From assembly GCA_032622095.1 (NCBI GenBank), contig CP136063.1:67347897-67411896 (forward strand): a DNA stretch of 64,000 nt, given 5' to 3'. The notes below the pieces were generated by a model, which was given only the letters and a program-made list of their open reading frames with translations, had not been told where the DNA came from and did no database searches. Below are positions 5,062 through 63,067 of the stretch, piece after piece. Made by a program: the position numbers and the translations under genes. The first letter of the stretch is position 1. Each line of letters opens with the position of its first letter. This stretch comes from Siphonodentalium dalli (lineage: Eukaryota; Mollusca; Scaphopoda; Gadilida; Siphonodentaliidae).

Positions 5062-5313
5062 TTAACCCTTTACCCAACAGAAGGGCCCTGTGCCAATGCA
5101 TTCTCTTATATATGCGAGTCGACCATAGGTCGCCTCGCATATATAAGAGAATGCATTGGCACAGGGCATAACTGTAACTATCACGATGTGGTCAAGGAGC
5201 CGGTTCCAATGATATCCATATTTGTATGGTTCTATTGAGACAGACCGAAGATATTTTAGGCTGTTGAAGCTTTATTTGGCCGGTTTTGGCCGGTTTGTTG
5301 GGTAAAGGGTTAA
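5062..5313 (+). mobile_element. TTAA-2 MITE, single-hairpin short form
   Basis: TTAA at both ends, termini CCCTTTACCCAACA and TGTTGGGTAAAGGG. Unlike other copies, which carry two hairpin modules separated by an AT-rich spacer, this one has only one (about 5087-5167). This is consistent with deletion between the two inverted hairpins. The AAGCTTTATTTGG / ACAGACCGAAGATATTTTAG segment typical of the family is intact. Confidence 0.85.
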
Positions 5314-5639
5314 GGGGGGGTTGTATTCTGAGTTCAGATTATCCGTTCCATCCATCCACCTGGGTACCAGTCTGTCCCCAGACACAACATCATCCAAATC
5401 TTGATTAGATCCTTCATTGTCTGGTCAGTATTTTAAAAATAGGCACACATGTTTTGCAAAAAACATAGTATTGTGTCAGCTTTTTTATAAATAAACCACT
5501 AGACTTAATTGTAAACTGTTGCTGGCATCATTTTCTTGAGTTAATTTAGAGAGCATGTGATTTTATACCAGTTGCACTTTACATGCAGTGGCTGTTCAGT
5601 GAATTCAGCATAGCTGTACGGGCCAGGGGGGACTGGGAA

Positions 5640-5950
5640 GGCTGCAGCCACCCCAAACATTTTGAAGCTCAAAATTTGGACAATTTTCGAACAAATTGGA
5701 GATATTTTCGGTCAAATTCAGACAATTTTCCGGCAAGTTGATTTGGTATTTCTATGGGAAATTGTGGCAAATTACAGTATTTCTGCCCGAATTATATATA
5801 TTTACGGTTGACTTTAATCTATTTTGTTATATTTATGTGTATATACAAGGTTTATTCTACAAAAATTGTGTTACAACCATGACTATATCATGTAAAAACA
5901 TTCGGCAAAAAGTCTCACCCCCTAAAAATGTTGGTGCCTGTACGGTTATG
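5640..5950 (+). repeat. dispersed repeat pair member (partner 18940-19190)
   Basis: Shared segments with 18940-19190 include GGGAAATTGTGGCAAATTAC, TCTATTTTGTTAT and TATTCTACAAAAA. Weak inverted ends (TGTACGGGCCA at 5616 and TGCCTGTACGG at 5936) hint at a DNA-transposon derivative, but this is not established. Confidence 0.45.
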
Positions 5951-6429
5951 GCACTGAATTGGGAAGTCAGACGTTTCTCCAATATGCTTGTGGTTCAGCA
6001 GAAATTTTACCTTGTTTCACCTGGTTTCCAGTCCAACACAACATGGTCTAAATCATTATTCATTTATCTTCATTTATCTTCTGTCAATATTTATAAATAT
6101 CATCTGTTTATTACTTACACACAGGCTGCAATCAATACAATCTGGTTCCGCTTTCGATGTCTGGTTCGACGTTTTGTAATTAGAAAATTTCATTTTATAT
6201 TTTAAATTTGTTGTAAATTGTGATTATCAAAAATACAATGCCCCGCACATGGTAAACAATCAGCACAAACTTTCCGAGTTTTAGAGCGCAAATCTCACAT
6301 CTTTGTATGGCGAAGATAAGAGTTAATATTTAGATGCAAATGATATTTATAGGATTTATACACATGACACAAGCTAAATCACATAATTGAATGTGAGACA
6401 ACAATTTTTACAAGTTTTTCATCAACATA

Positions 6430-7690
6430 TCTTGGATTTTACTCTTTGCATCACTAAATCCTTTGACACATCCTACAGACCACATCTCTGATCCGATCAT
6501 CACCAAACTTCATAGGGATCATCGGGGTGACCTCTAGATGGGAACGAGTCATTTTGGGGTCATTCGGCCAAAAAACATGGCCCTGGTGGCCATCTTGGAT
6601 TTCAAAATTGAATCCATTGGCGCGGGCTACAGGCCGTACTGTTTGTCTGATCATCATAAAATTTGTCATGAATGTTGACATTTACATGTAGATGGGAATG
6701 AGTCATTTTAGGATCAATCGGCCAAAAAGCATGGCCGCTGGTGGCCATCTTGGATTTTACTCTTGGCATCACTAAATCCTTTGACACATCCTACAGAACA
6801 CATCCCTGATCCGATCATCACCAAATTTCATATGGATCATTGGGGTGACCTCTAGATGGGAAACGAGTCATTTTAGGATTAATCGGCCAAACAGCATCTT
6901 GGATTTTATTCTTTGCATCACTAAATACTTTGACACACCCTACATACCACATCCCTGATCTGATCATCACCAAACTTCATGTGGATCATCGGGGTGATCT
7001 CTTGATGGGAACGAGTCATTTTGGGGTCATTCGGCAAAAAAATATGGCCATTTTGGATTTTATTCTTTCTTATGATGACTAAATATTTCTACAAAATCCA
7101 TTAGCATGGGTTATAGACCGATCTGTTTGTTTGGTCTTCATGAAATTTGTCATGGATTTTGACATTGACATGTAGATGGGAACGAGTCATTTTGGGGTCA
7201 TTCAGCAAAAAAACATGGCCGCCGGTGGCCATTTTAGAATTTACTCTTTTCATCACTAAATCCTTTGGCACACCCTACAGACCACATCCCTGATCCGATC
7301 ATTATGAAACTTGTCATGAATGTTGATATTGACATGTAGATGGGAACGAGTCATTTTGGGGGTCATTCAGCCAAAAAACATGGCCGCTGGTGGCCATCTT
7401 GGATTTCAAAATTGAATCCGTTGACGCAGGCTACAGGCAGTACTGTTTGTGTGATCTTCATAATAATTATCATGGATGTTGACATTGAGATAAATATGGG
7501 AACGAGTCATTTTAAGGTCATTCGGCCAAAAAACATGGCCACCAGCGGCCATCTTGCATTTTACTCTTAGGATCACTAAATCCTTTGACACCCCCTTTCA
7601 GACTAGATCCCTGATCTGATCATCACCAAACTTCATATTGATTATCGGGGTGACCTAGATGGGAACGCGTCATTTTGGGGTCATCCTCCA
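6430..7690 (+). repeat. tandem array of about 160-bp units
   Basis: The phrase GATGGGAACGAGTCATTTT recurs about eight times between 6535 and 7680 at spacings of roughly 150-170 bp. It alternates with ACATGGCCGCTGGTGGCCAT and CATCACTAAATCCTTTGACAC. Two unit subtypes differ in the stretch after the GGCCAT motif. The period is like the pearl-like arrays, but the sequence is unrelated and no terminal hairpins were found. Confidence 0.75.
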
Positions 7691-7996
7691 TTTACTGTCA
7701 ACCATTAAATTATTCCCCTACCTAAGTTGAGCTACAGTGTCATTGACACTTTCATTTGTGTGTTTTTGTGACGAAAAACCATTCTAACTGATGCATCAAA
7801 AATTATATTTAGTAACTTGTCTATTCTTGAGAAAGAGAACAAGACATTCGAAAACAGCGTATTTTTTGCTATAGAAGCAGACGATATAATGCCAACTCAG
7901 ACATCAAAAGCAGAACCGGATTGTATCGATTGCAGCCTGTGTTACATGGGATTCATAACCCTCTGTTGAACTGGTACTAGGAATTCATGTGCCCAT
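7691..7996. other. no recognised feature
   Basis: AT-rich interval between the 160-bp array and the piggyBac-type element. Nothing was recognised on either strand. Confidence 0.5.
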
Positions 7997-8223
7997 TTAA
8001 CCCTTTGAACCCGAGTGGCCGGAAAACCGGCCGCAGCGTGAATACCCCAGCAGCCGGTATACCGGCCGCTGGACCGGCCATATATCGACCGTCAAGTGTT
8101 TTTTGTTTACATACATCGTCGCGGTCGTCTGCTTGTCCAATAATTATGTTTTTGTTAGTGTCTTGTTGCTATTGTGTTTAAGCACACAACATAATGAATT
8201 ATGAAGCCTAAACATATTTTTTG

Positions 8224-10119: not shown

Positions 10120-10149
10120 CCTGTTTATATCTGAGCAGGCTAGCACAAC

Positions 10150-20231: not shown

Positions 20232-21160
20232 ATACGCCCTTTTGGAAAAAAGGTTGTATTATGTAATCATTCCATCTGTCTGTCCTTTTGTCCGTCTGTC
20301 CTTCTGTCCATCTGTCCGTTAACATTTTTGATTTCCGATCAATAACTCCAGTTTGGATTATTTTATCTGAACCAAAGTTGGTATGTGTATTTCCCAGCTA
20401 AAGATAGAGGCCAAGTTTAAATATGAGTTCCGTCCAATTATTTTACATGAGTTACGGTCCTTTTTCGACTTTTCAACTTTTGACCCATTTCATAACATTT
20501 TGGTTTCCGACCGATAACTCCAGGTTGGATTATTTTATCTGAACCAAAGCTGGTATGTGTGTTTCCCAGCTAAAACTACAGACTAGGTTCGAATATATGT
20601 TCTGTCCAATTATTTTCACATGAGTTACAGCCATTTTTCGACTTATGGCTATTAACCCTTTGAGTGCCAGGGGCCGATCTCATCGGCCCTAAACCTACAA
20701 AATAAGTCTGTTAAAGAATATAAGAATAAATTATTAAAATTGTAAAAAAACAAAAAAAATTGTTAGGCCAATGCATTCTCTTATATATGCGAGGCGACCT
20801 ATGGTCGACTCGCATATATAAGAGAATGCATTGGCACAGAGTATATGGGTTGATACAAAAATCGACCTGGCACTCAAAGGGTTAATCTCACTGGAGTTAT
20901 TCTCTAGTAAACAAATGTAATTTTTGTGACAAAGAAGTTGTCAGATTTTTTAAGCGACTTCCAAATGTTACTTTGTAACCCTCATTTTATTGAAAAGTGG
21001 AAATATTTTCATTTTTCTAGTTGGAGTTATTCTCTAATAAGCAAATGTAACTCTGTCACAATAAAAAACATGTCATATTTTTTAGACTTCCAAATGTCCA
21101 AAAATATTAAATACACATTTGTAACCGGGTTACTGGAGTTACAAGTAAACACCGGAGTTG
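20232..21160 (+). mobile_element. pearl-like element, copy 2, split by a TTAA-1 MITE
   Basis: The 5' hairpin ATACGCCCTTTTGG / AAAAAAGGTTGTAT is followed by a TCTGTCCGTC tract. Units then contain CCGA(T/C)(C/A)GATAACTCCAG, TTATTTTATCTGAACCAAAG and TGTGTTTCCCAGCTAAA. The TTAA-1 insertion at 20652-20885 interrupts it; GGAGTTATTCTCTA units resume at about 20890 and 21020. No 3' hairpin was identified, so the right border is uncertain. Confidence 0.5.
20652..20885 (+). mobile_element. TTAA-1 MITE
   Basis: TTAA plus CCCTTTGAGTGCCAGG at both ends. A GGGCCGATCTCATCGGCCC palindrome follows the left end. One hairpin module (about 20767-20836) is present, preceded by an A-rich spacer. Confidence 0.9.
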
Positions 21161-27275: not shown

Positions 27276-27518
27276 TTAACCCTTTGAGTGCCAGGTCCGA
27301 TTTTTGTATCAACCCATATACCCTGTGCCAATGCATTCTCTTATATATGCGAGTCGACCATAGGTCGCCTCGCATATATAAGAGAATGCATTGGCCTAAC
27401 AATTTTATTATTTTTTACAATTTTTTACAATTTTAATAATTTATTCTTATATTCTTTAACAGACTTATTTTGTAGGTTTAGGGCCGATGAGATCGGCCCC
27501 TGGCACTCAAAGGGTTAA
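27276..27518 (-). mobile_element. TTAA-1 MITE
   Basis: Opposite orientation to the 20.65-kb copy: the GGGCCGATGAGATCGGCCC palindrome is at the right end. TTAA at both sides. One hairpin module at about 27326-27396. Confidence 0.9.
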
Positions 27519-37254: not shown

Positions 37255-37653
37255 TTAACCCTTTACCCAACAGAACGGCCCTGTGCCAATGCATTCTCTT
37301 ATATATGCGAGTCGACCATAGGTCGCCTCGCATATATAAGAGAATGCATTGGCTTAACACATATTAAAAATGATAAAATTGTCAAAGAATGTAGAAAAAT
37401 ATCATAAAAATTGTTAAAAAATGTTTTTTAGGCCAATGCATTCTCTTATATATGCGAGGCAACTTATGGTCGACTCGCATATATAAGAGAATGCATTGGC
37501 ACAGGGCATAACTGTAACCATCACAATGTGGTCAATGAACCGGTTCCAATGATATCCATATTTGTATCGTGTTATTGAGACAGACCGAAGATATTTTAGG
37601 CTGTTGAAGCTTTATTTGGGCGTTTTTGGCCGCTTTGTTGGGTAAAGGGTTAA
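37255..37653 (-). mobile_element. TTAA-2 MITE
   Basis: TTAA at both ends. Terminus CCCTTTACCCAACAGAACGG at the left and TGTTGGGTAAAGGG at the right. Two hairpin modules (about 37281-37353, 37430-37507) in opposite orientation, separated by an AT-rich spacer. Confidence 0.95.
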
Positions 37654-37763: not shown

Positions 37764-38151
37764 TAGCCCTTTACCCAACAGAAGGGCCCTGTGCCAATGC
37801 ATTCTCTTATATATGCGAGTCGACCATAGGTCGCCTCGCATATATAAGAGAATGCATTGGCTTAACACATTAAAAATTATAAAATTGTTAAAGAATGTAA
37901 GAAAAAATGGTAAAAAGTGTTAAAAAAAGATTTTTTTAGGCCAATGCATTCTCTTATATATGCGAGGCGACCTATGGTCGACTCGCATATATAAGAGAAT
38001 GCATTGGCACAGGGCATAACTGTAACTATCACAATGTGGTCAAGGAGCCGGTTCCAATGATATCCATATTTGTATGGTTCTATTGAGACAGACCGAAGAT
38101 ATTTTAGGCTGTTGAAGCTTTATTTGGCCATTTTGTTGGGTAAAGGGTTAA
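37764..38151 (-). mobile_element. TTAA-2 MITE, left TTAA mutated
   Basis: The left flank reads CTAG instead of TTAA before CCCTTTACCCAACAGAAGGG; the right TTAA is intact. Two hairpin modules. Part of the GGCCGGTTTTGGCCGG tract near the right end is shortened to GGCCATTTTG. Confidence 0.9.
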
Positions 38152-38361: not shown

Positions 38362-38849
38362 TTAACACCATTACAAGTCTGACACTCCCGGTTCATTAAC
38401 ACCATTACAAGTCTGACACTCCCGGTTCATTAACCCTTTACCCAACAAACCGGCCAAAACCGGCCAAATAAAGCTTCAACAGCCTAAAATATCTTCGGTC
38501 TGTCTCAATAGAACCATACAAATATGGATATCATTGGAATCGGCTCCTTGACCACATTGTGATAGTTACAGTTATACCCTGTGCCAATGCATTCTCTTAT
38601 ATATGCGAGTCGACCATAGGTCGCCTCGCATATATAAGAGAATGCATTGGCCTAAAAAAAATCTTTTTTTACCATTTTTTATTACATTCTTTAACAATTT
38701 TATAATTTTTAATGTGTTAAGCCAATGCATTCTCTTATATATGCGAGGCGACCTATGGTCGACTCGCATATATAAGAGAATGCATTGGCACAGGGCCCTT
38801 CTGTTGGGTAAAGGGTTAACACCATTACAAGTCAGACACTCCTGGTCCA
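38362..38849 (+). repeat. three 34-bp tandem units split by a MITE
   Basis: TTAACACCATTACAAGTCTG ACACTCCCGGTTCA occurs at 38362 and 38396. A third, slightly diverged unit resumes at 38816 after the MITE. Every unit begins with TTAA. Confidence 0.9.
38430..38819 (+). mobile_element. TTAA-2 MITE
   Basis: Inserted exactly at the TTAA that starts the third 34-bp flanking unit, giving clean target duplication. The terminus with CCGGCCAAAACCGGCC is at the left. Two hairpin modules. Confidence 0.95.
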
Positions 38850-39018: not shown

Positions 39019-39468
39019 TTAACCCTTTACCCAACAAAACGGCCAAAAACCCCCAAATGAAGCTTCAACAGCCTAAAATATCTTCCGTCTGTCTCAATAA
39101 CACCATACAAATATGGATATCATTGGAACCGGTTCATTGACCACATTGTGGTGGTTACAGTTTTGCCCTGTGCCAATGCATTCTCTTATATATGCGAGTC
39201 GACCATAGGTCGCCTCGCATATATAAGAGAATGCATTGGCCTAAAAAAACACTTTTTACCATTTTTTCTTACATTCTTTAACAATTTTATAATTTTTTCT
39301 TACATTTGTTAACAATTTTTATAATATTTTTCTACATTCTTTGACAATTTTATCATTTTAATATGTCAAGCCAATGCATTCTCTTATATATGCGAGGCGA
39401 CCTATGGTCGACTCGCATATATAAGAGAATGCATTGGCACAGGGCCGTTCTGTTGGGTAAAGGGTTAA
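39019..39468 (+). mobile_element. TTAA-2 MITE, longer spacer
   Basis: TTAA flanks. The spacer between hairpins is expanded by repeats of the TTTCTTACATT(C/T)TTTAACAATTT type. It supplies the empty-site reference for the nested element at 44579. Confidence 0.95.
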
Positions 39469-39864: not shown

Positions 39865-40345
39865 TCCCCAACAAACAAAGTTTGGCAGGGCATAGAGAAA
39901 TGGGTTCTGTCCATCCATCCGTATGACCGTTTAGTTGTCCATGACTGTTGAACCTCTCTGTCTCAGTCATCATAGGTCAGATTTCAATGATCTTTGGTAT
40001 GCTCATGAACCACCAAGGGGAAGGAATACCCACATAGAATGGCGTGTGTCCATTTGTTTGTTACAGAGTTATAGCCATTTAAATTGTGTGAAGATGGACG
40101 CATTTATGTAAAATTTAGATCTTATCTCATTCACTGTACAGTACTGTATATCATGTTTGAACAGAACAATATCCACGTGAAAATGGTTTTGTCGATTCAT
40201 TTCTTCTGAAATTGCACTTTGAGTGTAAAATACGTCCATCACTGTATCTCCGTCATCTTCTATCGGATGTGATTGATCTTGGGTATATTCATGAAACACA
40301 ATGGGATGAAGGATGTCCACATGCAACAGCTTTTGATCAGTCATG
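39865..40345 (+). mobile_element. degenerate pearl-like element, copy 5
   Basis: CTGTCCATCCATCCGTATG tract, then two degenerate units: GATTTCAATGATCTTTGGTA with ATGAACCACCAAGGGGAAGG, and GTGATTGATCTTGGGTATAT with ATGAAACACAATGGGATGAA. The ends are not resolved. Confidence 0.4.
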
Positions 40346-40915
40346 CAAGCCGTGTTAAGACATCTTTCGAATTAAGCCATCTCGTAATATTAATAAACCT
40401 CAGCTGGGATAATCTGGTGTGGGGTGCACTAAGTCTTCTTGAATGCTTTCTCTTCTTACATTCTAAACCTGTTTACATCCATTCTTATCAGTTGTAACCA
40501 TGGAAGGTGTTCATGCAAGATTAAGTGACAGTAAGTCTAGCTGTTGCCTGAAAAATGCATAAAGACACAAATTAGACAGAAAATAATGATGTAAGCTTGA
40601 GTGAGTCTGAAAATGTATATAAAGTGACAGTTCACAAATAGGGGGAATCCCCTTGGTATCAGGGTTGCTTGGTGTCCAGTCATTTAAAATAATCATTAGT
40701 CATCTGGGGTAAACAGGACCTATTGCACGACTCCCTATAGTTACATCTATCTTTTAAGTTGATAATAAACACTCTTTATTGCTAATTATTAGTGCCTCTT
40801 TAAATGATTTGAGGTCAACAGCACCTATCCTGTGACATTGTCCATGTCATTTTACTTCTGTGCACCAATTTCCCCCTCATATTTTCTGCATTGATAATAA
40901 ATAAACATTATACAG
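40346..40915. other. no recognised feature
   Basis: Nothing recognised. Confidence 0.45.
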
Positions 40916-40916
40916 T

Positions 40917-41924
40917 TGTCGCCCGTTGTCGAGGGAGACATTGAGATTTGTCACCCGCTCGAGAACGGAATGTCTCCCGAGGAGCAAAGCTCCGAGGGAG
41001 ACATTCCGTCCTCGAGCGGGTGACAAATCTCAATGTCTCCCGAGAAGAAGGGCAACAACTGTTTTGTTATCCGATTATACCACAGAAAACATCCTTGCCA
41101 GCCACACGCACGATGTTGCACGAGTCACGAGTGCTTTCTTTCCCGATTATGTATATTTTCAGTAACTACTTATCGTCCCATAGGATTTCTGTTCCATAAA
41201 CGATAGTCAAGCTGTTAAGCGTAATTTGATCATCCGCGTTTATTTACGATCATTTTGGCGGTCAAATCGTCAATATCGGTCCATGCAATGTAAACCAATA
41301 AGACATATAGGTATGTTCAGTCTTCTGCAATGTGGCATATTCAATGTCGTCTTGTGCCCGCAATTTACTCGCGATGTTCATTTCATAACGGTTTTCCCCG
41401 AAAGCTATTGGGAAGTTGTCAATTTCATTAATGTACATTCATATTTGTCAGTGCTCATGGCGATCCTCACATAAAATACTTCTATGAACACATTGCAGAC
41501 ATCGCGGAGGATAAGCGTACAGTACCATTCATTCGCGACAAACGTATGCATTACGTTGTCTACCAGCGAACAGTTATAACCAACCAACCTCAAGGGATCC
41601 TCTCTTTCAATCTTGCATCATAATGTCGACATGAACAAATTGAATCACCGAGATGTTTCGATGTAAAAAGTAAATAATAACGCTTGTCCGATAAAAGTAT
41701 CAACTTAAAAGTTCGAATATTAGTGTTCACTAAATATATGCAAATTAGCAAACACCACAACTGGTGTGTTTTGCGAATCCGTGGGGTATATAAGATCTAT
41801 GATTTTTTAGTACGTCGTAGTGATGTGAAATAGATGAGTTACAGCAGTGTGTGGTTGGAGATATTCTTGCAATATAACATCAGGCGGGCGACAAAAACAA
41901 TGTCTCCCGGGTCAGCGGGCGACA
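40917..41924. mobile_element. 1.0-kb CpG-rich TIR element with a terminal hairpin
   Basis: The left end TGTCGCCCG ... GGGAGACATTG ... TTTGTCACCCGC is matched, inverted, by 41880-41924 (GCGGGCGACAAA, CAATGTCTCCCGGG, CGGGCGACA). At the left the sequence folds again: 40930-40985 and 40989-41044 are inverted 55-bp arms with a 3-base loop (GGAGC AAA GCTCC). The interior is markedly richer in CG dinucleotides than its surroundings, and no transposase is recognisable. Confidence 0.55.
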
Positions 41925-42154
41925 GTGTGATTTGTCGCCCGGAACATGACAGCACATGGGCCAATCAGAAGGGTGGAAAATAGGGAGGAGGATAACAATC
42001 TTTATTGATCATCTAATTAATTAGCCACCCCTTTAAGTCGCCTCATATCCAGCTTAAAAGTACAGTTCACAAATAAGGGGAGGTCGAGGTGATAAACGTG
42101 AATTTAAGTTAAACATAGGATTCCTATTCATTACTTATCAGGGAATGTTAGATA

Positions 42155-42375
42155 TTAACCCTTTCAAGATGGGAGATGAGCTGGTGCAGCATTAAATACC
42201 TGTGCCAGTGGGAGACTTACATATAAAAGAGAATACACTGGCTTACAAGATCTAGGTAAACATTGTTAGGCCAATGCATTCTGTTATATTTGCAAGGCTC
42301 CTTATGGGAGACTCGCATATGTAAGAGAATGCATTGGCACAGGGTTTTTTTGCAAAATTTCAGGACGCTCCAGTA
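42155..42375 (-). mobile_element. TTAA-3 MITE, decayed right end
   Basis: TTAACCCTTTCAAGATGGGAG at the left, with GCTGGTGCAGCATTAAAT just inside, then a diverged hairpin module (CAAGGCTCCTTATGGGAGAC). The right end stops at AGGACGCTCC without TTAA. Confidence 0.7.
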
Positions 42376-43017
42376 CAAGTTGTAAGAGGGTGTCTGCATG
42401 ACCAGGTAACACATCATGTACGGTTAGCGAAAATCACACCTAATTTGGTATACGGATCAAGTTCAAATACGGGTTCTGTCTACATGCCCCACTCTACTCC
42501 AGAAACGGGAGTAATATGCCACGCCCTGATGGCGTGCTCTTGTATCACAAAAATGTATGGATGATAAGAGAAAGAAGAGGGAATCTGCAAAGCATATGAA
42601 AATAGGGGAAAAAAAATAATGGAACAGTGACCCAATTTTGTGCTGATACCTGATTCCACGTTCATTTGTCATAAATTTAAGGGTGGAGAGCAGTGGCCCG
42701 GAGCAGTTTTACAAAATTTGGAAAAGAATTTCGAATGTATGCACCAAAATATCTCAATTAATAAAACCCAAAAGTTGAAATTTATAATTTATAAATGAAA
42801 TCGCCGGAAAAGGAAGAGACTAAGCCAATAAGATCTTAATGATAGGTAGCATGTGGTATATAAGTTACCTTTGTTAGTGGGTGATTTAACATGGAGTGTG
42901 TAGACAGCCTCGGACCATATACATGTCAACAGGAATTACTGCAGGCTTCAATTAACATGGAAAAGAAAAAATGCTGAAAAGAATAAAAGATCGTGTATAT
43001 TTTCTTTAAATCAGGGA
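42376..43017. other. no recognised feature
   Basis: Nothing recognised. Confidence 0.45.
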
Positions 43018-43018
43018 C

Positions 43019-43131
43019 CAGGGGCGTATAGCCAGGTTTCCTTGGTAGGGGAGCCCAGGGGCATATAGCCAGGTTTCCTTGGTAGGGGAGCCCAGGGGCA
43101 TATAGCCAGGTTTCCTTGGTAGGGGAGCATA
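43019..43131 (+). repeat. three 37-bp tandem units
   Basis: GGGGCGTATAGCCAGGTTTC CTTGGTAGGGGAGCCCA repeats at 43021, 43058 and 43095. Confidence 0.9.
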
Positions 43132-43229
43132 GCCATATATTGGGGGTCCTGGCCAGTCATACACTATGACGATACAATAATATATGTGACCCGCCATATC
43201 AAATCCAGTCGGAAGTCGGGATTTTTTTT

Positions 43230-43606
43230 ACCCTGTGCCAATGCATTCTCTTATATATGCGAGTCGACCATAGGTCGTCTCGCATATATAAGAGAATGCA
43301 TTGGCTTAACACATTAAAAATTATAAAATTGTTAAAGAATGTAAGAAAAAATGTTAAAAAGTGTTAAAAAAAGATTTTTTTTAGGCCAATGCATTCTCTT
43401 ATATATGCGAGGCGACCTATGGTCGACTCGCATATATAAGAGAATGCATTGGCACAGGGCATAACTGTAACTATCACAATGTGGTCAAGGAGCCGGTTCC
43501 AATGATATCCATATTTGTATGGTTCTATTGAGACAGACCGAAGATATTTTAGGCTGTTGAAGCTTTATTTGGCCGGTTTTGGCCGGTTTGTTGGGTAAAG
43601 GGTTAA
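43230..43606 (-). mobile_element. TTAA-2 MITE, left-truncated
   Basis: Starts at CCCTGTGCCAATGC, lacking TTAACCCTTTACCCAACAG. Two hairpin modules and an intact right end with TTAA at 43603-43606. Confidence 0.9.
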
Positions 43607-43649
43607 ACCGTGTCATACTAAACATATGAACACCAACTTTTCGACCTTT

Positions 43650-43835
43650 ACTTGCACATGACTTCAGGTCCCTAGATTAATCTCAAGTGTTTCCACAGAT
43701 TACTGGTTGCTTTGGCATTTCTGTGATTGATCATAAATTAAATTATGTGACAATGACAGGTACAAAAGTATTTGAGCCTGTCATATTGATTTTGTTGGTA
43801 GGTTTTAACCTGTCAATGACCATGACAGGTGAGTT
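43650..43835 (+). repeat. dispersed repeat pair member (inverted partner 18715-18885)
   Basis: ACTTCAGGTCCCTAGATTAA, TTCCACAGATTACTG and AATGACCATGACAG are shared with the reverse complement of 18715-18885. Confidence 0.65.
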
Positions 43836-44208
43836 ATTTTAAGGCATGATCAATGGAGGAATCATAGATGTTTGTTAATCAGCGAAAATTTTCCTTGAAT
43901 TAAGGAGTAAATGATTACAATTGTACGTAGTTCAGATGTGTTTTCCGAAGTGGGGATTTTCAATAATATTAGTTGAATGCTATATTCATTCAGTGGATAA
44001 AGTACCTGGGTACTCCACTTATCAGTTTGATTCACTGACACATGTATATTATGGTCCCCATGTGGTCACCAATGACTCCTATATGTGATAAATGTATAAC
44101 ATGACACAAAGATGCCAACATTTTCCCACAGAGACGAACGAAAGGTATATTACTATATAGTTATCCGACGTTATGTGGGGGACAATGAGCCATCGGAGCT
44201 AACCTTGG

Positions 44209-45681
44209 TTAATCCTTTACCCAACAAACCGGCCAAAAACGCCCAAATAAAGCTTCAACAGCCTAAAATATCTTCGGTCTGTCTCAATAACACCATACAA
44301 ATATGGATATCATTGGAACCGGTTCATTGACCACATTGTGATGGTTACAGTTAATTTTTCTGGAAAGTGTTCAAATGTTGACACAAAGACATCTACACTT
44401 AAACCAATTCACGCGAAATGGTCTGTCTCAATAGAACCATTCAATGGTTATGCCCTGTGCCAATGCATTCTCTTATATATGCGAGTCGACCATAGGTCGC
44501 CTCGCATATATAAGAGAATGCATTGGCCTAAATTTTTTTACAATTTTATAATTTTTTCTTACATTTTTTAACAATTTTGATACGCCCTTTTGAAAAAAAG
44601 GCCGTATTATAGTATTGGTCTGTCCGTCCGGGCGTCCGTCCGTTAACCTGTTGTCCGGATGATAACTTTAGTTAGAGTGAACCAAAATTAGTAAAATTTG
44701 GTATGTGGGTTTATTAGCCGAAAAGTAAGTTCAAGTTCGAATTTGGGTTCCGCCCGCCAATTTTCACCGGAGTTATGCCCCTTATTTAACGTTTTTTGAC
44801 TTAGAAAATCCTTGAAATTTGTTGTCCGGATGATAACTTTAGTATAGTTAATCGGAATGAATCCAAATTTGGTATATTACTTTCTCCCACCAAAACACAG
44901 GTCAAGTTGGAACTTGGGTTCTGTCCGACCATTTTTGGCAGAGTTATGCCCCTTTTTCGACTCAGAAAATTCAGTTTTTCTTATGTTTTTTGGTTTCCGG
45001 ATGATAACTCGATTTTGGAATGTTTATACGCAAAACCCGTATTTTTGTGGATTACATATATCGAAATACAGCTCAAGTCCGAATTTAGTTTTAATCCGAT
45101 AATTTTTGCGAGAGTTATGGCCCCTTTTTTTTACGTAATTTGACTTAGAAAATCCATGAAATTTGTTGTCCGGATGATAACTTTAGTTAGAGTGAACCGA
45201 TTTCAATCAAATTTGGTATGTGGGTTTATTAGGAGAAAAGACAGATCAAGTTCGAATTTGGGTTCCGTCCGCCAATTTTCACCGGAGTTATGCCCCTTAT
45301 TTGACGTAATTTGACTTAGAAAATCCCTGAAATTTGTTGTCCGCATGATAACTTTACTAGAGCTTATCGGATTCAATGATAATTTGGTATATTACTTTCT
45401 CCCACCAAAACACAGGTCAAGTTCAAATTTGAGTTCCGTCCACCAATTTTTCCAGAGTTATGCCCCTTTTTTACCAGTTTCCGCCGACCCAAGAGAGGGC
45501 GTATATTGCACGCCCAACGTAGCTCTTGTTATAATATTTTTCTACATTCTTTGACAATTTTATCATTTTTAATATGTGTTAAGCCAATGCATTCTCTTAT
45601 ATATGCGAGGCGACCTATGGTCGACTCGCATATATAAGAGAATGCATTGGCACAGGGCCGTTCTGTTGGGTAAAGGGTTAA
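44209..45681 (+). mobile_element. TTAA-2 MITE interrupted by a pearl-like element
   Basis: Left TTAA then TCCTTTACCCAACA, right CCCTTTACCCAACA complement plus TTAA. First hairpin at about 44455-44527, second at about 45583-45655. A 90-base stretch (44352-44445) unlike other copies precedes the first hairpin. The spacer is split between AACAATTTT and TATAATATTTTTC by 44579-45529. Confidence 0.9.
44579..45529 (+). mobile_element. pearl-like element, copy 6, boundaries fixed by nesting
   Basis: The 5' end GATACGCCCTTTTGAAAAAA folds on GGCCGTAT, followed by a TCCGTCCG tract. Five units at 171-173 bp follow (GATAAC at 44661, 44832, 45003, 45176, 45347), each with GTTGTCCGGATGATAACTTT, TTTGGTAT(A/G)T and GAGTTATGCCCCTT. 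The 3' hairpin GGGCGT ... ACGCCC (about 45498-45515) is followed by AACGTAGCTCTTG. Comparison with 39019-39468 shows insertion between T and T with no target duplication, as for Helitron-type elements. Confidence 0.8.
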
Positions 45682-45858
45682 AAGCCACATGGTGATTCCC
45701 GCTCCAAAATACACCTAATAATATTCACTTTTGAATTTTTCCCCGCTATCAAAATAGGTCGATAAAAACCTTTCTTCACAGCTATTCTGCAACCATTATA
45801 TATCTAAGAAAGATGCATTGAAGTCATAAAAAATCTTACTTCAAATATGATTATCCAT

Positions 45859-45958
45859 ATTTGTATTCATTTAAGTTCTGGATTCAGGGACGGAATAGTC
45901 TGAGATATCCTTTTTGCTGTGATCAAATCTACGGATACGTTCCATGTGGTTACTCGTA
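45859..45958 (+). repeat. direct repeat, left copy (partner 47196-47292)
   Basis: TTCATTTAAGTTCTGGATTC ... ACGTTCCATGTGGTTACTCG recurs at 47196-47292 with a few changes. The pair brackets the Harbinger and FB-B insertions. Confidence 0.85.
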
Positions 45959-46029
45959 ACAGCACCAGAACAACTTCTTGTTAACCGCATCTATAGAAAA
46001 CAATGTTGACTCAATTACACTACACCTAA

Positions 46030-46745
46030 AGCCGCTTACACATAGGCGCGGCGCGGCCGGTGCGACCGACGCGGCCGGACGTTCGAGTTTGTGCAGTCAT
46101 GAAGCACGGGACCTTACACATTGGCGCCGCGCGGCCAATTGACGCGCGGCGACATTTTTAATGAGCGGCGCGATTATTTTCAATGGAACCGTGAGCCATT
46201 TTGCAGAGCGATCGCGCGACGAATCACTGTCAGATCAAAGCATTCCACACATATTCATCGGGTCATGTAGCACTACCTCAAATTGAAGGGAAATCCCCAA
46301 AAAATCAATTGGCTTCCGCGCCCTGTATTCGTTCTTTATATCATCTTCGATGAAGAAAAGTATCCGTGCGAACTGTTCCTTTGGCGTTCTAAAATATTGT
46401 ATAAATTTGTCCTCATCTGAATAGAGTTCACGGTATAAATTATGATTAAATACACCATGTAAATATCTCTTCTTATTAATTGGGTGTACCATAAACCTTC
46501 TATTTCTCTTCTTTTTCCGTTCTTTTTCCGTTGTCGATACAAATATGCCAGTGCTATTATAACAAGTGTGTCATCAGACACTGCCTCCGTTCTAAAATCA
46601 TGTTATGAAATACAATACTTTGGGCGTTTATAATTATTCTGCCGCTGCCATGTGAAAGCGACACACTCACGCGGCGAAGACAAAAAGTTTATTCGCTAGA
46701 TAAACGCGTCGGTCGCGCCGCACCCATGTGTAACCAGCTTTACAG
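46030..46745 (-). mobile_element. PIF/Harbinger-type element, internally deleted
   Basis: GC-rich inverted ends: CTTACACATAGGCGCGGCGC with TGCGACCGACGCG at the left and the inverse CGCGTCGGTCGCGCCGCACC, then CATGTGTAA, at the right. A transposase N-terminal remnant lies inside on the minus strand. Target duplication could not be read unambiguously. Confidence 0.65.
46235..46492 (-). pseudogene. PIF/Harbinger transposase N-terminal remnant
   Basis: Reads MVHPINKKRYLHGVF, then RELYSDEDKFIQYFRTPKEQ, then RKPIDFLGISLQF before losing similarity. The 'WVHPIN.KR..HGEF..L...L..D...F..YFRM....F' pattern is the conserved start of Harbinger transposases. In this copy the frame upstream (an Arg/Lys-rich leader, about 46500-46580) is shifted by one base. 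The DDE catalytic core is absent, so it cannot encode an active enzyme. Confidence 0.65.
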
Positions 46746-48647: not shown

Positions 48648-49016
48648 TTAACCCTTCCATGACTGGAGCTTCCTGAAATTTTGCAAAAACCCTATGCCAA
48701 TGCAATCTCTTATACAGTAATCCCTAAATAATCAACTCCTTAACTACAGCAGAATCATGCATAATTTTTCAGGATTTAGTTAAACTCTCACTGAGAGCTT
48801 TCTGATGAATGGCAACAAGCCATATTTCCGTCTAAATCCTGAAAAATTACCCGTAATTCTGCTGTGATTAAAGAATTATAAGAGAATACTTTGGCCTAAC
48901 AATATTTACTTTGACCTTGTAAGCCAGTGCATTCTCTATGTGAGGCTCCCTTTAGAATGTGCTGGCTCATGATCTTTAATGCTGCACCAGCGCAGCTCCC
49001 ATCATGAAAGGGTTAA
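48648..49016 (+). mobile_element. TTAA-3 MITE with nested TA-MITE
   Basis: TTAACCCTTCCATGACTGGAGC at the left; GCGCAGCTCCCATCATGAAA then GGGTTAA at the right. The first hairpin's arms (ATGCAATCTCTTATA and ATAAGAGAATACTTTGG) are split by a TA-MITE at 48714-48880. Confidence 0.85.
48714..48880. mobile_element. TA-MITE copy nested in a TTAA-3 hairpin
   Basis: Starts CAGTAATCCCTAAATAATCA next to TCTTATA and ends in a diverged AATTCTGCTGTGATTAAAGA. The insertion point TA within CTTATATA fits a TA target. Confidence 0.75.
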
Positions 49017-51749: not shown

Positions 51750-52002
51750 TTAACCCTTTTGAGTGCCAGGTCCGATTTTTGTATCAACCCATATACCCTG
51801 TGCCAATGCATTCTCTTTAATATATATGCGAGTCGACCATAGGTCGCCTCGCATATATAAGAGAATGCATTGGCCTAACTTTTTTTTCCTTTTTTTTTTC
51901 CCAATATTTTACAATTTTAATAATTTATTCTTATATTCTTTAACAGACTTATTTTGTAGGTTTCGGGCCGATGAGATCGGCCCCTGGCACTCAAAGGGTT
52001 AA
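51750..52002 (-). mobile_element. TTAA-1 MITE
   Basis: TTAA flanks. The left terminus has an extra T (CCCTTTTGAGTGCC). One hairpin module, whose left arm carries a short insertion (CTCTTTAATATATATGCGAG). Confidence 0.9.
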
Positions 52003-52675: not shown

Positions 52676-52925
52676 ATCTTTTTCATGACTGGAGATTCCT
52701 GAAATTTTTCGAAAACCCAGTGCCAATGCATTCTCTCATATATATGAGTCTCCCGTGAGGAGCCTTACATATATAAGAGGATACATTGGCCTAACATTAT
52801 TTACCTTGACCTTGTAAGCCCATTCTCTTATATATGTGAGGCTTTCTATGGGCGACTCCTATATATAAGAGAATGCAACTGGCACAGGATATTTAATGCT
52901 ACACCAGATTATCACTCCTGCATTG
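52676..52925 (+). mobile_element. TTAA-3 MITE, decayed ends
   Basis: TTTCATGACTGGAGATTCC, two diverged hairpin modules with inner stems CTCCCGTGAGGAG and CTTTCTATGGGCG, then TTTAATGCTACACCAG. Terminal TTAA is not preserved. Confidence 0.7.
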
Positions 52926-53868: not shown

Positions 53869-54130
53869 TTAACCCTTTGAGTGCCAGGGGACGATCTCAT
53901 CGGCCCTAAACCTACAAAATAAGTCTGTTAAAGAATATAAGAATAAATTATTAAAATTGTAAAAAAAAAAAAAAAAATGTAAGGCCAATGCATTCTCTTA
54001 TATATGCGAGGCGACCATAGTTCTCTTATATATGCGAGGCGACCTATGGTCGACTCGCATATATAAGAGAATGCATTGGCACAGGGTATATGGGTTGATA
54101 CAAAAATCGACCTGGCACTCAAAGGGTTAA
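53869..54130 (+). mobile_element. TTAA-1 MITE with hairpin partially duplicated
   Basis: TTAA flanks and CCCTTTGAGTGCCAGG ends. The left hairpin arm is repeated: GCGAGGCGACCATAG then TTCTCTTATATATGCGAGG again, as if replication restarted within the stem. Confidence 0.9.
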
Positions 54131-54234: not shown

Positions 54235-54755
54235 TATCCCTTTCATGACCGGAGCAGTGCTGGTGCAGCATTAACCCTTTACCCAACAGAACGGCCCTGT
54301 GCCAATGCATTCTCTTATATATGCGAGTCGACCATAGGTCGCCTCGCATATATAAGAGAATGCATTGGCTTAACACATTAAAAATTATAAAATTGTTAAA
54401 GAATGTAAGAAAAAATGGTAAAAAGTGTTAAAAAAAGATTTTTTTTAGGCCAATGCATTCTCTTATATATGCGAGGCGACCTATGGTCGGCTCGCATATA
54501 TAAGAGAATGCATTGGCACAGGGCATAACTGTAACCATCACAATGTGGTCAATGAGCCGGTTCCAATGATATCCATATTTGTATGGTTCTATTGAGACAG
54601 ACCGAAGATATTTTAGGCTGTTGAAGCTTTATTTGGCCGGTTTTGGCCGGTTTGTTGGGTAAAGGGTTAAATATATTGTGCCAGTGTATTCTCTTAAATA
54701 TGCGAGTCTCCCATAGGGAGCCTTGAATATATAAAGAGAATGCATTTGTCTGCTG
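54235..54755 (+). mobile_element. TTAA-3 MITE interrupted by a TTAA-2 MITE
   Basis: TTATCCCTTTCATGACCGGAGC and GCTGGTGCAGCA at the left; ATATATTGTGCCAGTGTATT and the hairpin CTCCCATAGGGAG at the right. The split lies at the internal TTAA that is intact in the copy at 42155. Confidence 0.8.
54271..54670 (-). mobile_element. TTAA-2 MITE nested in TTAA-3
   Basis: TTAA at both edges. Two hairpin modules, the second with one base changed in the loop-side stem (CTATGGTCGGCTCGC). GGCCGGTTTTGGCCGG near the right end. Confidence 0.95.
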
Positions 54756-55579: not shown

Positions 55580-56105
55580 AAAGGAAATTTGTGGTAGAGA
55601 GAAAAATCCTGCGACTCTTTTTAAAATTATAACTAGCAAAGAATGTTTTTAAAAAGTAAACACACAATTAAAGTTAAAAGCCCAAAGGAAGGAAATTATT
55701 TAACCTTTCCATGACTGGAGCTTCCTGAAATTTTGCGAAAACCCTGGGCCAAAGCTTTCTCTTATATATGCGAGTCTCCCATAGGGAGATATGTTTAATC
55801 ATATATAAGAGAGTACATTGTCCTAACAATATTTACCTTGACCTTGTAAGCCAGTGCATTCTCTTATATATGTCAGCCTCCCTGTGGGAGACTTGCCTAT
55901 ATAGGGGAATGCACTGGAACATGATCTTTAATGCTGCACCAGCGCAGCTCCGTGATTAAAGGGTTAGGAAAGGAATTTTGTGGCAGAGAGCAAGATCCTG
56001 GAACGCTTGTTTTATTATAATGTATAACAAAGAATTTATTTTTTTAATTTAAACGCACCATAAAAAAGAATATTAAAAGCCCAAAGGACAGATGTTATTT
56101 TTTTT
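55580..56105 (+). repeat. about 125-bp direct repeat flanking a TTAA-3 MITE
   Basis: GAAAGGAAATTTGTGGTAGA ... AAAGCCCAAAGGAAGG at 55580-55700 and GAAAGGAATTTTGTGGCAGA ... AAAGCCCAAAGGACAG at 55968-56102. Confidence 0.8.
55700..55966 (+). mobile_element. TTAA-3 MITE
   Basis: TTAACCTTTCCATGACTGGAGC to GCTGCACCAGCGCAGCTCC and AAAGGG then TTAG. Hairpin inner stems CTCCCATAGGGAG and CTCCCTGTGGGAG. Confidence 0.8.
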
Positions 56106-56597: not shown

Positions 56598-56979
56598 TTA
56601 ACCCTTTACCCAACAAACCGGCCAAAACCGGCCAAATAAAGCTTCAACAGCCTAAAATATCTTCGGTCTGTCTCAATAGAACCATACAAATATGGGTATC
56701 ATTGGAACCGGCTCCTTGACCACATTGTGATAGTTACAGTTATGCCCTGTGCCAATGCATTCTCTTATAGGTCGCCTCGCATATATAAGAGAATGCATTG
56801 GCCTAAACAAAATCTATTTTAACACTTTTTACCATTTTTTCTTACATTCTTTAACAATTTTATAATTTTTAATGTGTTAAGCCAATGCATTCTCTTATAT
56901 ATGCGAGGCGACCTATGGTCGACTCGCATATATAAGAGAATGCATTGGCACAGGGCCATTCTGTTGGATAAAGGGTTAA
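56598..56979 (+). mobile_element. TTAA-2 MITE with hairpin 1 partly deleted
   Basis: TTAA flanks. The first hairpin has lost its inner left stem (CATTCTCTTATAGGTCGCCT), and the second is intact. Confidence 0.95.
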
Positions 56980-60179: not shown

Positions 60180-60586
60180 TTAACCCTTTACCCAACAAAC
60201 CGGCCAAAACCGGCCAAATAAAGCTTCAACAGCCTAAAATATCTTCGGTCTGTCTCAATAGAACCATACAAATATGCCTTTATGGATATCATTGGAACCT
60301 GCTCCTTGACCACATTGTGATAGTTACAGTTATGCCCTGTGCCAATGCATTCTCTTATATATGCGAGTCGACCATAGGTCGCCTCACATATATAAGAGAA
60401 TGCATTGGCCTAAAAAAAAATTTTTTTAACACTTTTTACCATTTTTTCTTACAATCTTTAACAATTTTATAATTTTTAATGTGTTAAGCCAATGCATTCT
60501 CTTATATATGCGAGGCGACCTATGGTCGACTCGCATATAGAAGAGAATGCATTGGCACAGGGCCCTTCTGTTGGGTAAAGGGTTAA
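60180..60586 (+). mobile_element. TTAA-2 MITE
   Basis: TTAA flanks and two hairpin modules. A short internal duplication adds AATATGCCTTTATGG before ATATCATTGG. Confidence 0.95.
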
Positions 60587-60925: not shown

Positions 60926-61176
60926 TTAACCCTTTGAGTGTCAGGTCGATTTTTGTATCAACCCATATACCCTGTGCCAATGCATTCTCTTATATATGCG
61001 AGTCGACCATAGGTCGCCTCGCATATATAAGAGAATGCATTGGCCTAATAATTATTATTATTTTTTATTTTTTTTACATTTTTTACAATTTTAATAATAT
61101 ATTCTTATATTCTTTAACAGACTTATTGTGTAGGTTTAGGGCCGATGAGATCGGCCCCTGGCACTCAAAGGGTTAC
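60926..61176 (-). mobile_element. TTAA-1 MITE, right TTAA mutated
   Basis: Left TTAACCCTTTGAGTGTCAGG, right CCTGGCACTCAAAGGG then TTAC. One hairpin module. GGGCCGATGAGATCGGCCC at the right end. Confidence 0.9.
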
Positions 61177-61239
61177 TTCTTAAACATTGTTGTGTATGAT
61201 AACCAGTTACAAATAAGGCATCTTTAATCCAAGTCCATG

Positions 61240-62275
61240 TTTGTCATAGCTGCCGCAACTCGATCTCTGCTTCTCTGATGTGATTCTTGTTAAATATAGC
61301 ATTATTCCTCTTTATATAATACCTAGCTAGCCTGACTACTTTTACATGATCGGTTTTTTCCCCATCATGGCAATGACTGTCTTGCTGTCCTCTTGGCCTA
61401 TGTGTACTATTCTAGTCTATAATTGGCATGTCAGACCTTTTATCGATGGGGGATAGCCAGAGATGGAGCGAGTCCATTGATGGAATGCTTTGTCAATAAG
61501 ATGGAAACGATATCATGTGGTTGGACAGCTTAGCTATAATAACCGCCTTCCGTCCAAGATACAATGGCATCTTAATATAGAGATTGTCATCTGTCCTTTC
61601 ATGTCGACCAGGAGTTGATTGTTTTATGTTCATCTGCCTGAGACATGTTTGCACACATCATAGAACAAATCAACCTTCCTCTTATATTGGCTTATATCTC
61701 TTTCACATCTTTCCGCTCATTGTTTCATATGAAACCTATAGAAACTGGGTCTTGGTCTAAGTCTAAGAAACCTATTGAAGAGCGAGTCTGCACATACTGC
61801 ACTCGCTGTTCAATAGGGGACGAATTCCATTTGATCATGGATTGCACCAGTGTTAGCTCTTTAAGAAATAGATTTCTACCCCGCCACCTTACTGAGCAAA
61901 TAAACGTTTATAACTTCTGCTCAATTCTAACTTGAAACACAACCGATACTGTGTACACGAACAAGTTGTGTGGGTTTTTAAGATACGCCCAACAGGTCGC
62001 ATAGTTCACTCCTTTTCGAGGGTTTACCCCACAGGAATGGACTTTGCAACCATTGGTATACTATATATTATTCGGATCACCGTAGCATCACCCTACCTTA
62101 CCATCTCTAGACATATACATGCGACGACGGCAAATGTCTACAATGACTTTATTAAATTTCAATTGTTATACTACTATTTTATTTGTTTACACCACAGTGC
62201 TATCTATTATATTTGATTTGTTCGTGTATTACACATGTAATTAGAACAACAATAAAGAATCTTGAATCTTGAATG
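61240..62275 (+). pseudogene. LINE 3' end with C-terminal coding remnant
   Basis: In the frame at 61645-61935, the LINE C-terminal motif CTYCTRCSIGDEFHLIMDC is followed by SLRNRFLPRHL and a stop. A decayed frame lies upstream. The 3' untranslated part ends in AATAAAGAATCTTGAATCTT (62250-62270), the short tandem tail (TCTTGAA)n common in CR1/L2/Rex-type LINEs. It is a different family from the (TTGA)n-tailed copy at 54776 judging by the tail, and is 5'-truncated. Confidence 0.65.
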
Positions 62276-62385
62276 CAGGCATAAAGCATATCCTGTTACA
62301 TTTTTCCTTTCATTTCTAAATCAGAATGAACTCTGGCAGTCAGCTCGAAAATGCCAATGTTTGAAATCGGTTGTCTGTCTGCAAG

Positions 62386-62650
62386 TAGTGTGCTTGTCAT
62401 TTTCAGAATGAGGTTCCCATAGGGTGAATTTAGTGATGCTATCCCACAAAGTGGGCAAGCATCAGCGAATTCACCCTCTGGGGACCTCATTCTGCTTTAG
62501 GCCTCATCTTCTTGGAAACTTCAATCAGATCCTAGGTCTCCCATAGCAGTTGAGGCCTCAGCAGAATTAGGTCTGTGCGGGTTAATGTTATTAAATTCAC
62601 CCTCTGGGGACCTCATTGTGCAAATGGCAGACAACATATTTGCAGCCTTG
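62386..62650. mobile_element. FB-B foldback, diverged
   Basis: CAGAATGAGGTTCCCATAGG and GGGGACCTCATTCTGC, then a second, partly deleted set ending GGGGACCTCATTGTGC. Contains AGATCCTAGGTCTCCCATAG, seen also at 22255. Confidence 0.75.
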
Positions 62651-62714
62651 GAAATTGGCCTATTTTTCAGTTTTATCAAAGATCTGATACTATATTATAA
62701 TAAGCTCAAGACTT

Positions 62715-63067
62715 TTAACCCTTTACCCAACAAACCGGCCAAAAACGCCCAAATAAAGCTTCAACAGCCTAAAATATCTTCGGTCTGTCTCAATAACACC
62801 ATACAAATATGGATATCATTGGAACCGGTTCATTGACCACATTGTGATGGTTACAGTTATGCCCTGTGCCAATGCATTCTCTTATATATGCGAGTCGACC
62901 ATAGGTCGCCTCGCATATATAAGAGAATGCATTGGCCTTTAACAATTTTATAATTTTTAATATGTTAAGCCAATGCATTCTCTTATATATGCGAGGCGAC
63001 CTATGGTCGACTCGCATATATAAGAGAATGCATTGGCACAGGGCCGTTCTGTTGGGTAAAGGGTTAA
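62715..63067 (+). mobile_element. TTAA-2 MITE, short spacer
   Basis: TTAA flanks. Two hairpin modules separated by only about 30 bases. Confidence 0.95.

What the first reader, a model, noticed from the sequence alone, without database searches (positions are those of the whole stretch)
5062..63067. One hairpin module shared by three TTAA MITE families, with compensatory stem changes
TTAA-1 (5 copies), TTAA-2 (11) and TTAA-3 (5) have unrelated termini and flanks but all carry internal hairpins of the same plan: arms CCAATGCATTCTCTTATATA TGCGAG and inverse, one mismatch, a 5-bp inner stem, and loop ATA/TAT. TTAA-1 and TTAA-2 hairpins are almost identical, and TTAA-2 carries two in opposite orientation. 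In TTAA-3 the inner stem is CTCCC-ATA-GGGAG instead of CGACC-ATA-GGTCG: both sides changed together at two positions. The off-centre mismatch (T opposite C) is kept in nearly all TTAA-1 and TTAA-2 copies and marks orientation. Either the hairpin is maintained by selection (small RNA precursor, transposase or host-factor binding, replication signal), or arms are homogenised by template switching. The first would be a new kind of portable module.
Basis: partly seen in the sequence, partly recalled or inferred. Interest (0 to 1): 0.75.

Follow-up and report, generated by a model that had tools for sequence, protein, structure and literature searches.

The report
Shared hairpin in unrelated mobile DNA
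A 67-base hairpin present in over a hundred thousand near-identical copies in one 2.2-billion-base genome sits inside at least four families of small jumping DNA with different ends, and its pairing seems to be preserved between families although single copies show no repair.

Summary
The hairpin (26-bp arms, T/C mismatch, 5-bp inner stem, ATA loop) is inside T1 (5), T2 (11) and T3 (5) in the window. Genome-wide its arm has 518,193 hits against 5 for a control. T1-T3 share TTAACC(C)TTT tips, and homology runs past the hairpin.

A fourth host, T4, is not a TTAA element: GTGACCCGCC... ends, 4-bp AWWT duplications (the Sola2 pattern), same hairpin. Window 43186-43606 is a T4/T2 chimera.

The compensatory claim splits. 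Between family consensus sequences, changes are mostly paired (28/38, 29/37; 3/63 between the two T3 hairpins), with single-sided exceptions in T3. Within copies there is no compensation: at the one pair counted, 878 left-only, 537 right-only and 3 double changes, against 4.1 expected. So arm-to-arm copying does not keep that pair matched. In T1/T2/T4, no hairpin site (0/335) has a variant shared by 3 or more copies, against 34/764 elsewhere (12/515 under stricter filtering, p=0.005, mostly T2).

Best reading: a portable subterminal module of non-autonomous transposons, kept paired by selection on source copies. Its mechanism is untested, and hitchhiking is a close rival.

The parts
5062..5313 (+). 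T2 element with only the left hairpin (5093-5159); right hairpin and spacer deleted
20652..20885 (-). T1 element (TTAACCCTTTGAGTGCCAGG), one hairpin 20768-20834
27276..27518 (+). T1 element, hairpin 27328-27394
37255..37653 (+). T2 element (TTAACCCTTTACCCAACA), hairpins 37286-37352 and 37433-37499, opposite orientation
37767..38151 (+). T2 element, left TTAA lost, two hairpins
38430..38819 (-). T2 element, two hairpins
39019..39468 (-). T2 element, two hairpins, longer spacer
42155..42367 (+). T3 element (TTAACCCTTTCAAGATGGGAG), old, one CTCCC-type hairpin plus remains of a second; right TTAA not found
43186..43606 (+). Chimera: T4 left end (GTGACCCGCCATATC...) joined at the hairpin to T2 right half (TTAA end)
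44209..45681 (-). T2 element interrupted by about 1 kb of other DNA between its hairpins (44460-44526 and 45584-45650)
48648..49016 (+). T3 element, degraded hairpins
51750..52002 (+). T1 element, hairpin with 4-bp insertion in left arm
52680..52905 (+). T3 element, ends decayed, two hairpins
53869..54130 (-). T1 element; hairpin carries a 28-bp partial repeat of its own arm (template-switch-like)
54271..54670 (+). T2 element, two hairpins
54680..54749 (+). T3 fragment: one CTCCC-type hairpin
55700..55967 (+). T3 element, two diverged hairpins
56598..56979 (-). T2 element, one hairpin intact, the other with a 17-bp central deletion
60180..60586 (-). T2 element, two hairpins with single-sided private changes
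60926..61176 (+). T1 element, hairpin 60977-61043
62715..63067 (-). T2 element, two hairpins, short spacer

Best explanation
The hairpin is the core of a portable subterminal module (CCCTGTGCC - 67-bp hairpin - GGCCTAA...) carried by several families of non-autonomous DNA transposons. Three have piggyBac-like TTAA ends (T1-T3) and one has Sola2-like AWWT duplications (T4). Shown: the sharing, the different ends and target duplications, a hairpin-joined T4/T2 chimera, consensus changes that mostly keep pairing, and unpaired decay in single copies. Inferred: the module passed between families by recombination or template switching inside this very abundant repeat, and the few source copies that spawn new insertions are under selection to keep it. 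Most likely (inference) it acts in cis for mobility, as a palindromic binding site or extruded hairpin for a factor that more than one transposase pathway can use.
For: Four hosts, one hairpin: T1, T2 and T4 consensus hairpins are identical over 67 bp while outer flanks are unrelated. 17 of 22 T4 copies have identical 4-bp flanks, all 17 fitting AWWT; two of the 22 are duplicates of others. Twenty arm places, picked from the 100 printed to lie away from listed T1 and T2 ends, all fall in elements of these families or pieces of them. Of 20 loci chosen by the T4 end (of 100 printed), all 20 stretches hold at least one full hairpin, though in L161 it belongs to a second T4 piece. Against 41,009 exact T2 left ends, two core-less joins (gap up to 10 bp) exist. 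Chimera at 43186-43606. Consensus level: T3 and T1/T2/T4 hairpins differ only at 28/38 and 29/37, both sides. The two T3 hairpins differ in a paired way at 3/63: A-T left (A 15 of 15, T 12 of 15), G-C right (G 8 of 11, C 10 of 11). Chance of two Watson-Crick double changes from four random stem changes: 9e-5. Copies: T2 low-frequency substitution rate 0.84% in hairpins against 0.94% elsewhere (p=0.57), but 0 of 335 T1/T2/T4 hairpin sites have a variant shared by 3 or more copies against 34 of 764 other sites.
Against: The constraint signal shrinks after removing two duplicate loci and AT-rich sites: 0/335 against 12/515, p=0.005, 11 of the 12 from T2; T1 and T4 alone are not significant there. 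With variants shared by 2 or more copies the hairpins have 4 sites. The paired consensus changes amount to two or three events; 28-29/37-38 may be one. T3 has shared single-sided variants: position 60 G to A in 8 of 15 left hairpins, and sites 10, 27, 30 and 31 vary in 20% or more of 28 T3-type hairpins. Recent spread of one hairpin version could give the identity of T1, T2 and T4 without function. No autonomous partner carrying the hairpin was found: 25 piggyBac loci, from 128 domain matches, were inspected; none has T1-T3 ends, and three have only one weak arm-like hit with 7 errors. T4's transposase was not sought; 'Sola2-like' rests on the duplication pattern.
Confidence: 0.46

Rival explanations
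1. Passive hitchhiking: one AT-rich, palindromic internal stretch spread by recombination into several MITE families shortly before their bursts. It is uniform because the bursts are young, and it has no function.
For: T1, T2 and T4 copies are young (117 CGACC-type hairpins hold 41 single-sided stem changes, one double and 6 changes at mismatch or loop). The homology extends beyond the hairpin into AT-rich DNA. Hairpins mutate about as freely as flanks in T2 copies. The constraint signal weakens to p=0.005 under stricter filtering. T3 hairpins carry shared single-sided variants.
Against: T2 has shared variants at 11 of 136 right-flank sites but at none of 134 hairpin sites, p=8e-4. The T3 hairpin consensus, from copies averaging 9.7% divergence (26 hairpins), equals the young one at 63 of 67 sites, and the four differences are paired. 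Two different transposon types picked it up.
Confidence: 0.38
2. Arm-to-arm template switching (quasi-palindrome correction) keeps the arms matched, as proposed for RNA hairpins by Monttinen and Loytynoja (PMC8794818; abstract and one results section seen).
For: Template-switch-like footprints occur inside some hairpins: window 53869-54130, L117, L042. The hairpin is long and strongly folding (-50.9 kcal/mol, z -13.9).
Against: Pair 30/36 genome-wide: 878 left-only, 537 right-only, 3 double, 114,866 unchanged; expected doubles by independence 4.1. In the sample, no complementary double beside 41 single-sided stem changes. The T/C mismatch persists in 138 of 145 hairpins.
Confidence: 0.07
3. 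Small-RNA precursor: transcripts of the element fold into a pre-miRNA-like hairpin that is processed, as in Made1/mir-548 (PMC1784062, passages seen).
For: Both strands fold into one stable 67-nt hairpin. The single-sided T3 variant at position 60 would be a G-U wobble on the other strand. Many Rfam miRNA models match T2 copies with low E-values (down to 1.8e-19, MIR841), though all are below the curated gathering scores.
Against: The Rfam matches are to many different miRNA models and lie under gathering, as long inverted repeats would give; only 36600-46200 was searched. No expression data. It gives no obvious reason why the transposon itself would be selected to keep the hairpin.
Confidence: 0.08

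Closest known systems
piggyBac-type MITEs (TTAA)
   Same: T1-T3 have TTAA at their ends, CC-starting termini and no room for a transposase; the genome has many open piggyBac transposase frames.
   Different: None of 25 inspected transposase loci carries T1-T3 ends or a clear hairpin; the subterminal hairpin pair is not a piggyBac hallmark that I know of (recall).
Sola2-type elements (AWWT 4-bp duplications; passages of PMC3627910)
   Same: T4 duplications are ATAT, AAAT, ATTT and AATT; ATAT, AAAT and ATTT are the ones that paper lists for Sola2 chimeras.
   Different: No Sola2 transposase was linked to T4; T4 has an outer inverted repeat of about 45 bp followed by the hairpin.
REPINs of bacteria (passages of PMC3116915)
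   Same: Two palindromic units in opposite orientation forming one mobile unit with a less conserved spacer; that paper reports compensatory changes and selection at the level of the element.
   Different: REPINs are tied to tyrosine transposases (RAYTs) in bacteria and are the element itself; here the hairpins sit inside elements with target duplications, in a multi-gigabase genome.
Made1 MITE / mir-548 (passages of PMC1784062)
   Same: Palindromic MITE sequence that would fold as a pre-miRNA-sized hairpin.
   Different: Made1's palindrome is its own terminal repeats; here the palindrome is internal and shared by families with different ends. No small RNA shown.

Membership tests
MITE (non-autonomous DNA transposon) | Short, terminal inverted repeats, target duplications, high copy number | tested here: met
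   T2 41,009 exact left ends, T1 4,924, T4 26,886 end hits; T4 duplications in 17 of 22; T1 and T2 bounded by TTAA in most window copies
MITE (non-autonomous DNA transposon) | No transposase of its own | tested here: met
   Copies of about 200-500 bp; two T1 forms (L009, L010) whose right end lies outside the fetched stretch are not judged
piggyBac superfamily (T1-T3) | TTAA target duplication, ends starting CCY | tested here: met
   T3 ends are often decayed
piggyBac superfamily (T1-T3) | Mobilised by a piggyBac transposase with matching ends | tested here: inconclusive
   25 transposase loci inspected out of 128 domain matches; none with T1-T3 ends
Sola2 superfamily (T4) | 4-bp AT-rich (AWWT) duplication | tested here: met
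   against passages
Sola2 superfamily (T4) | Sola2 transposase with matching ends | not tested
   no search made for it
RNA hairpin under base-pair selection | Compensatory changes between families | tested here: inconclusive
   Three paired sites in two blocks; single-sided shared variants in T3 at 60 and, less often, at 10, 27, 30, 31
RNA hairpin under base-pair selection | Compensation within copies above chance | tested here: not met
   3 doubles against 4.1 expected at pair 30/36; no complementary double beside 41 singles in 117 hairpins; T3 type 22 doubles against 16.9 by shuffle, P=0.05
miRNA precursor | Processed small RNA | not testable with these tools
   no RNA data
REPIN | Association with a RAYT transposase | not tested
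   analogy only

The most novel reading that the evidence does not exclude
A DNA hairpin acts as a general mobility or amplification enhancer. Any small element that captures it, whatever its transposase (TTAA piggyBac type or AWWT Sola2 type), spreads better, so the module moves between transposon families as a selfish part within selfish DNA and is kept paired by selection on source copies.
Probability: 0.22. Interest if true: 0.82.

Novelty: new variant of a known kind. Interest (0 to 1): 0.55.

Why it matters
If the hairpin is selected, it would be a cis-acting part shared by transposons that probably do not share a transposase. That would say something general about what limits MITE bursts (chromatin access, replication timing, host factor). 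The genome also offers a natural test of template-switch maintenance of palindromes with over 110,000 near-identical copies. At the one stem pair counted, that test came out negative.

Tried and rejected
Rejected: arm-to-arm homogenisation in copies, at the pair counted. Rejected: hairpin confined to TTAA elements. Rejected: T1 and T2 unrelated outside the hairpin. Not supported: core as a nested insertion with its own target duplication. Flanks of CCCTGTGCC...GGCACAGGG differ between hosts and show no common duplication by eye (TA in T1 and T4, not in T2 or T3), and the two core-less T2 joins look like internal deletions. Led nowhere: autonomous partner among 25 piggyBac transposase loci; a 4.6-kb T4-T4 interval that turned out to hold two separate T4 elements; Rfam. 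Weakened on re-test: the shared-variant contrast (p 4.6e-6 to 0.005). Dropped: an early impression of an amplified one-hairpin T2 subfamily; the two copies kept different hairpins.

Rows left out before counts; 7 of 124 CGACC-type and 14 of 40 CTCCC-type hairpins, for indels or more than 12 changes; it covers loci L009-L148 and the window, not L149-L170., T2: of 40 loci, four without a found right end and L068, leaving 35; window T2 copies not used., T1: of 20 loci L009, L010, L015 and L020 were left out, 4 of the 5 window copies added (53869-54130 left out), giving 20., T4: pairs of ends 300-560 bp apart only, 22 copies; one search drops two duplicates (L149, L155), leaving 20. Samples: T1 20 of 100 printed places, T2 40 of 100, T4 20 of 100 plus copies met elsewhere, all from contig C1; T3 30 of 100 printed (C1-C9) and 10 of 100 printed (C1). 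Five of the 22 T4 copies came through arm hits and so are biased towards intact arms; some of the 20 T4 places were picked because two ends lay close together.

Literature: of the 10 paper searches, those aimed at MITE hairpin modules or shared interiors listed 12, 1, 2 and 0 papers, none of whose titles or abstract starts reports one. Passages were seen of PMC5199201, PMC10294476, PMC3627910, PMC3116915 and PMC1784062; abstract, introduction start and one results section of PMC8794818. The rest are listings.
Full report
WHAT IS THERE. The arm CCAATGCATTCTCTTATATA has 64 hits in the window with up to 3 mismatches, against 0.00 in shuffles. In the whole genome (2.227 Gb in 9 contigs; organism not named) it has 259,481 + 258,712 hits with up to 2 mismatches, against 2 + 3 for the reversed control. 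The central 33 bp of the T1/T2 hairpin occurs exactly 114,866 times. The T3-type centre (39 bp, up to 3 mismatches) occurs 36,610 times. As RNA the T1/T2 hairpin folds at -50.9 kcal/mol, z about -13.9 on either strand.

THE THREE TTAA FAMILIES. T1 starts TTAACCCTTTGAGTGCCAGG, T2 TTAACCCTTTACCCAACA, T3 TTAACC(C)TTTC(C)ATGA.... All share TTAACC(C)TTT, so they are not unrelated at the tip. Counts of left ends: T2 41,009 exact, T1 4,924 at up to 2 mismatches, T3 1,264 at up to 3 mismatches with a pattern that turned out not to be the commonest T3 form. T1 carries one hairpin. T2 and T3 carry two in opposite orientation, because the core is itself an inverted repeat: CCCTGTGCC-hairpin-GGC(C/T)TAA ... 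hairpin-GGCACAGGG. T1, T2 and T4 also share an AT-rich stretch next to the hairpin. T1 exists in longer forms: with T4-like interior (L009, L010, right end not in the fetched stretch) and with other DNA (L125, L127).

A FOURTH HOST. Twenty loci (L109-L128) were taken from the 100 arm places printed, picked to lie away from listed T1 and T2 ends, so their proportions are not a census. Twelve are TTAA-type elements or pieces of them; eight are whole copies or pieces of a different element, T4, two of them (L119, L122) assigned by their interior alone. T4 ends in GTGACCCGCCATATCAAATCCAGTCGTAAGTCGGGAT and has 26,886 end hits at up to 3 mismatches. Its flanking 4 bp are identical on both sides in 17 of 22 copies, and all 17 fit AWWT. 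A published passage gives AWWT (ATAT, AAAT, ATTT) for Sola2 elements (PMC3627910). I call T4 Sola2-like on that ground only. Of 20 loci chosen by the T4 end, all 20 stretches hold at least one full hairpin; in L161 it belongs to a second T4 piece. T1, T2 and T4 consensus hairpins are identical. Window 43186-43606 has a T4 left end and a T2 right half joined at the hairpin, one direct case of hairpin-centred exchange between families.

COMPENSATION TESTED. Copy level: in 117 indel-free CGACC-type hairpins there are 41 single-sided stem substitutions, no complementary double and one non-complementary double. In 26 CTCCC-type hairpins there are 118 single-sided changes and 22 double-sided ones (15 complementary, 10 of these the 3/63 difference between the two T3 hairpins); shuffles give 16.9, P=0.05. 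Genome level, pair 30/36: C to T on the left only 878, G to A on the right only 537, both 3. With 114,866 unchanged copies independence predicts 4.1 doubles; the 95% upper bound on doubles is about 0.6% of hairpins mutated at that pair. So copies neither compensate nor are repaired arm-to-arm at this pair. Only this pair, and only this transition, was counted genome-wide.

FAMILY LEVEL. T3 and T1/T2/T4 consensus hairpins differ at 4 of 67 positions, all in two adjacent pairs and on both sides. The two hairpins of T3 differ at pair 3/63 in a paired way, A-T against G-C. Against this, T3 has shared single-sided variants: position 60 G to A in 8 of 15 left hairpins, and sites 10, 27, 30 and 31 vary in 20% or more of 28 hairpins, beside the CpG sites 22/23 and 43/44. 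The T/C mismatch is kept in both types. Two double changes out of four random stem changes would both be complementary by chance about 9e-5 of the time, but 28-29/37-38 may be one event.

CONSTRAINT. T2 copies mutate in the hairpins (0.84%) as in the rest (0.94%, p=0.57). T4: 1.63 against 2.12% (p=0.11). T1: 0.78 against 1.66% (p=0.026, with poly-T alignment noise in the rest). Variants shared by 3 or more copies: 0 of 335 hairpin sites against 34 of 764 others (p=4.6e-6). After dropping two duplicate T4 loci and AT-rich neighbourhoods: 0 of 335 against 12 of 515 (p=0.005), 11 of the 12 from T2; T1 and T4 alone are not significant. With variants shared by 2 or more copies the hairpins have 4 of 335 sites. 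So the contrast rests mostly on T2. The T3 hairpins were not put through this test. Core-less T2 joins number two in the genome, within the 10-bp gap searched.

MECHANISM. Shown: shared module, two target-duplication types, one hairpin-joined chimera, unpaired decay in copies, mostly paired changes between consensus sequences. Inferred: exchange by recombination or template switching in the repeat; selection on source copies; a cis role in mobility. T1-T3 and T4 should need different transposases, so a shared factor or a DNA-structure effect is more likely than one transposase's own site; this is inference. Rivals are hitchhiking (0.38), small RNA (0.08) and arm copying (0.07).

KNOWN RELATIVES. 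By anatomy these are MITEs: piggyBac-like (T1-T3) and Sola2-like (T4). No autonomous partner was found in 25 piggyBac transposase loci out of 128 domain matches, each fetched with limited flanks. In plan the paired, inverted palindromes resemble bacterial REPINs (PMC3116915, passages), without any claim of kinship. Hence 'new variant of a known kind'.

Noticed in passing
window 53869-54130; L117:758-844; L042: Hairpins with inserted pieces of their own arms, like template-switch footprints: they lengthen or break the palindrome rather than correct it.
   Followed up: partly
L161 around position 190; L024-L026; window 56598-56979: Central deletions of the hairpin that leave a shorter palindrome or one arm; each is different in this sample.
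   Followed up: no
L165:60-620: A T4 copy inserted inside the arm of a T3 hairpin, with ATAT on the left and ATAC on the right.
   Followed up: no
T4 interior, e.g. L121 and L152: The T4 interior holds a further inverted repeat (ACCCTGCAGGGAGCCCCACAC...GTCTGGGGCTCTGTATGGGT), possibly a third nested element; L159 has two interiors in opposite orientation.
   Followed up: partly
G000 C1:735000-920000: T2 ends and hairpins recur at about 14.6-kb and 11.2-kb spacing, so they seem to be amplified inside large tandem arrays.
   Followed up: no
L111: A T3-like left end with a CGACC-type hairpin and a T2-like spacer of tandem repeats about 30 bp long, another mixed combination.
   Followed up: no
G000, PF13843: 128 piggyBac transposase domain matches (a lower bound), many in open frames of 500-700 codons, suggesting recent activity of several lineages.
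   Followed up: partly
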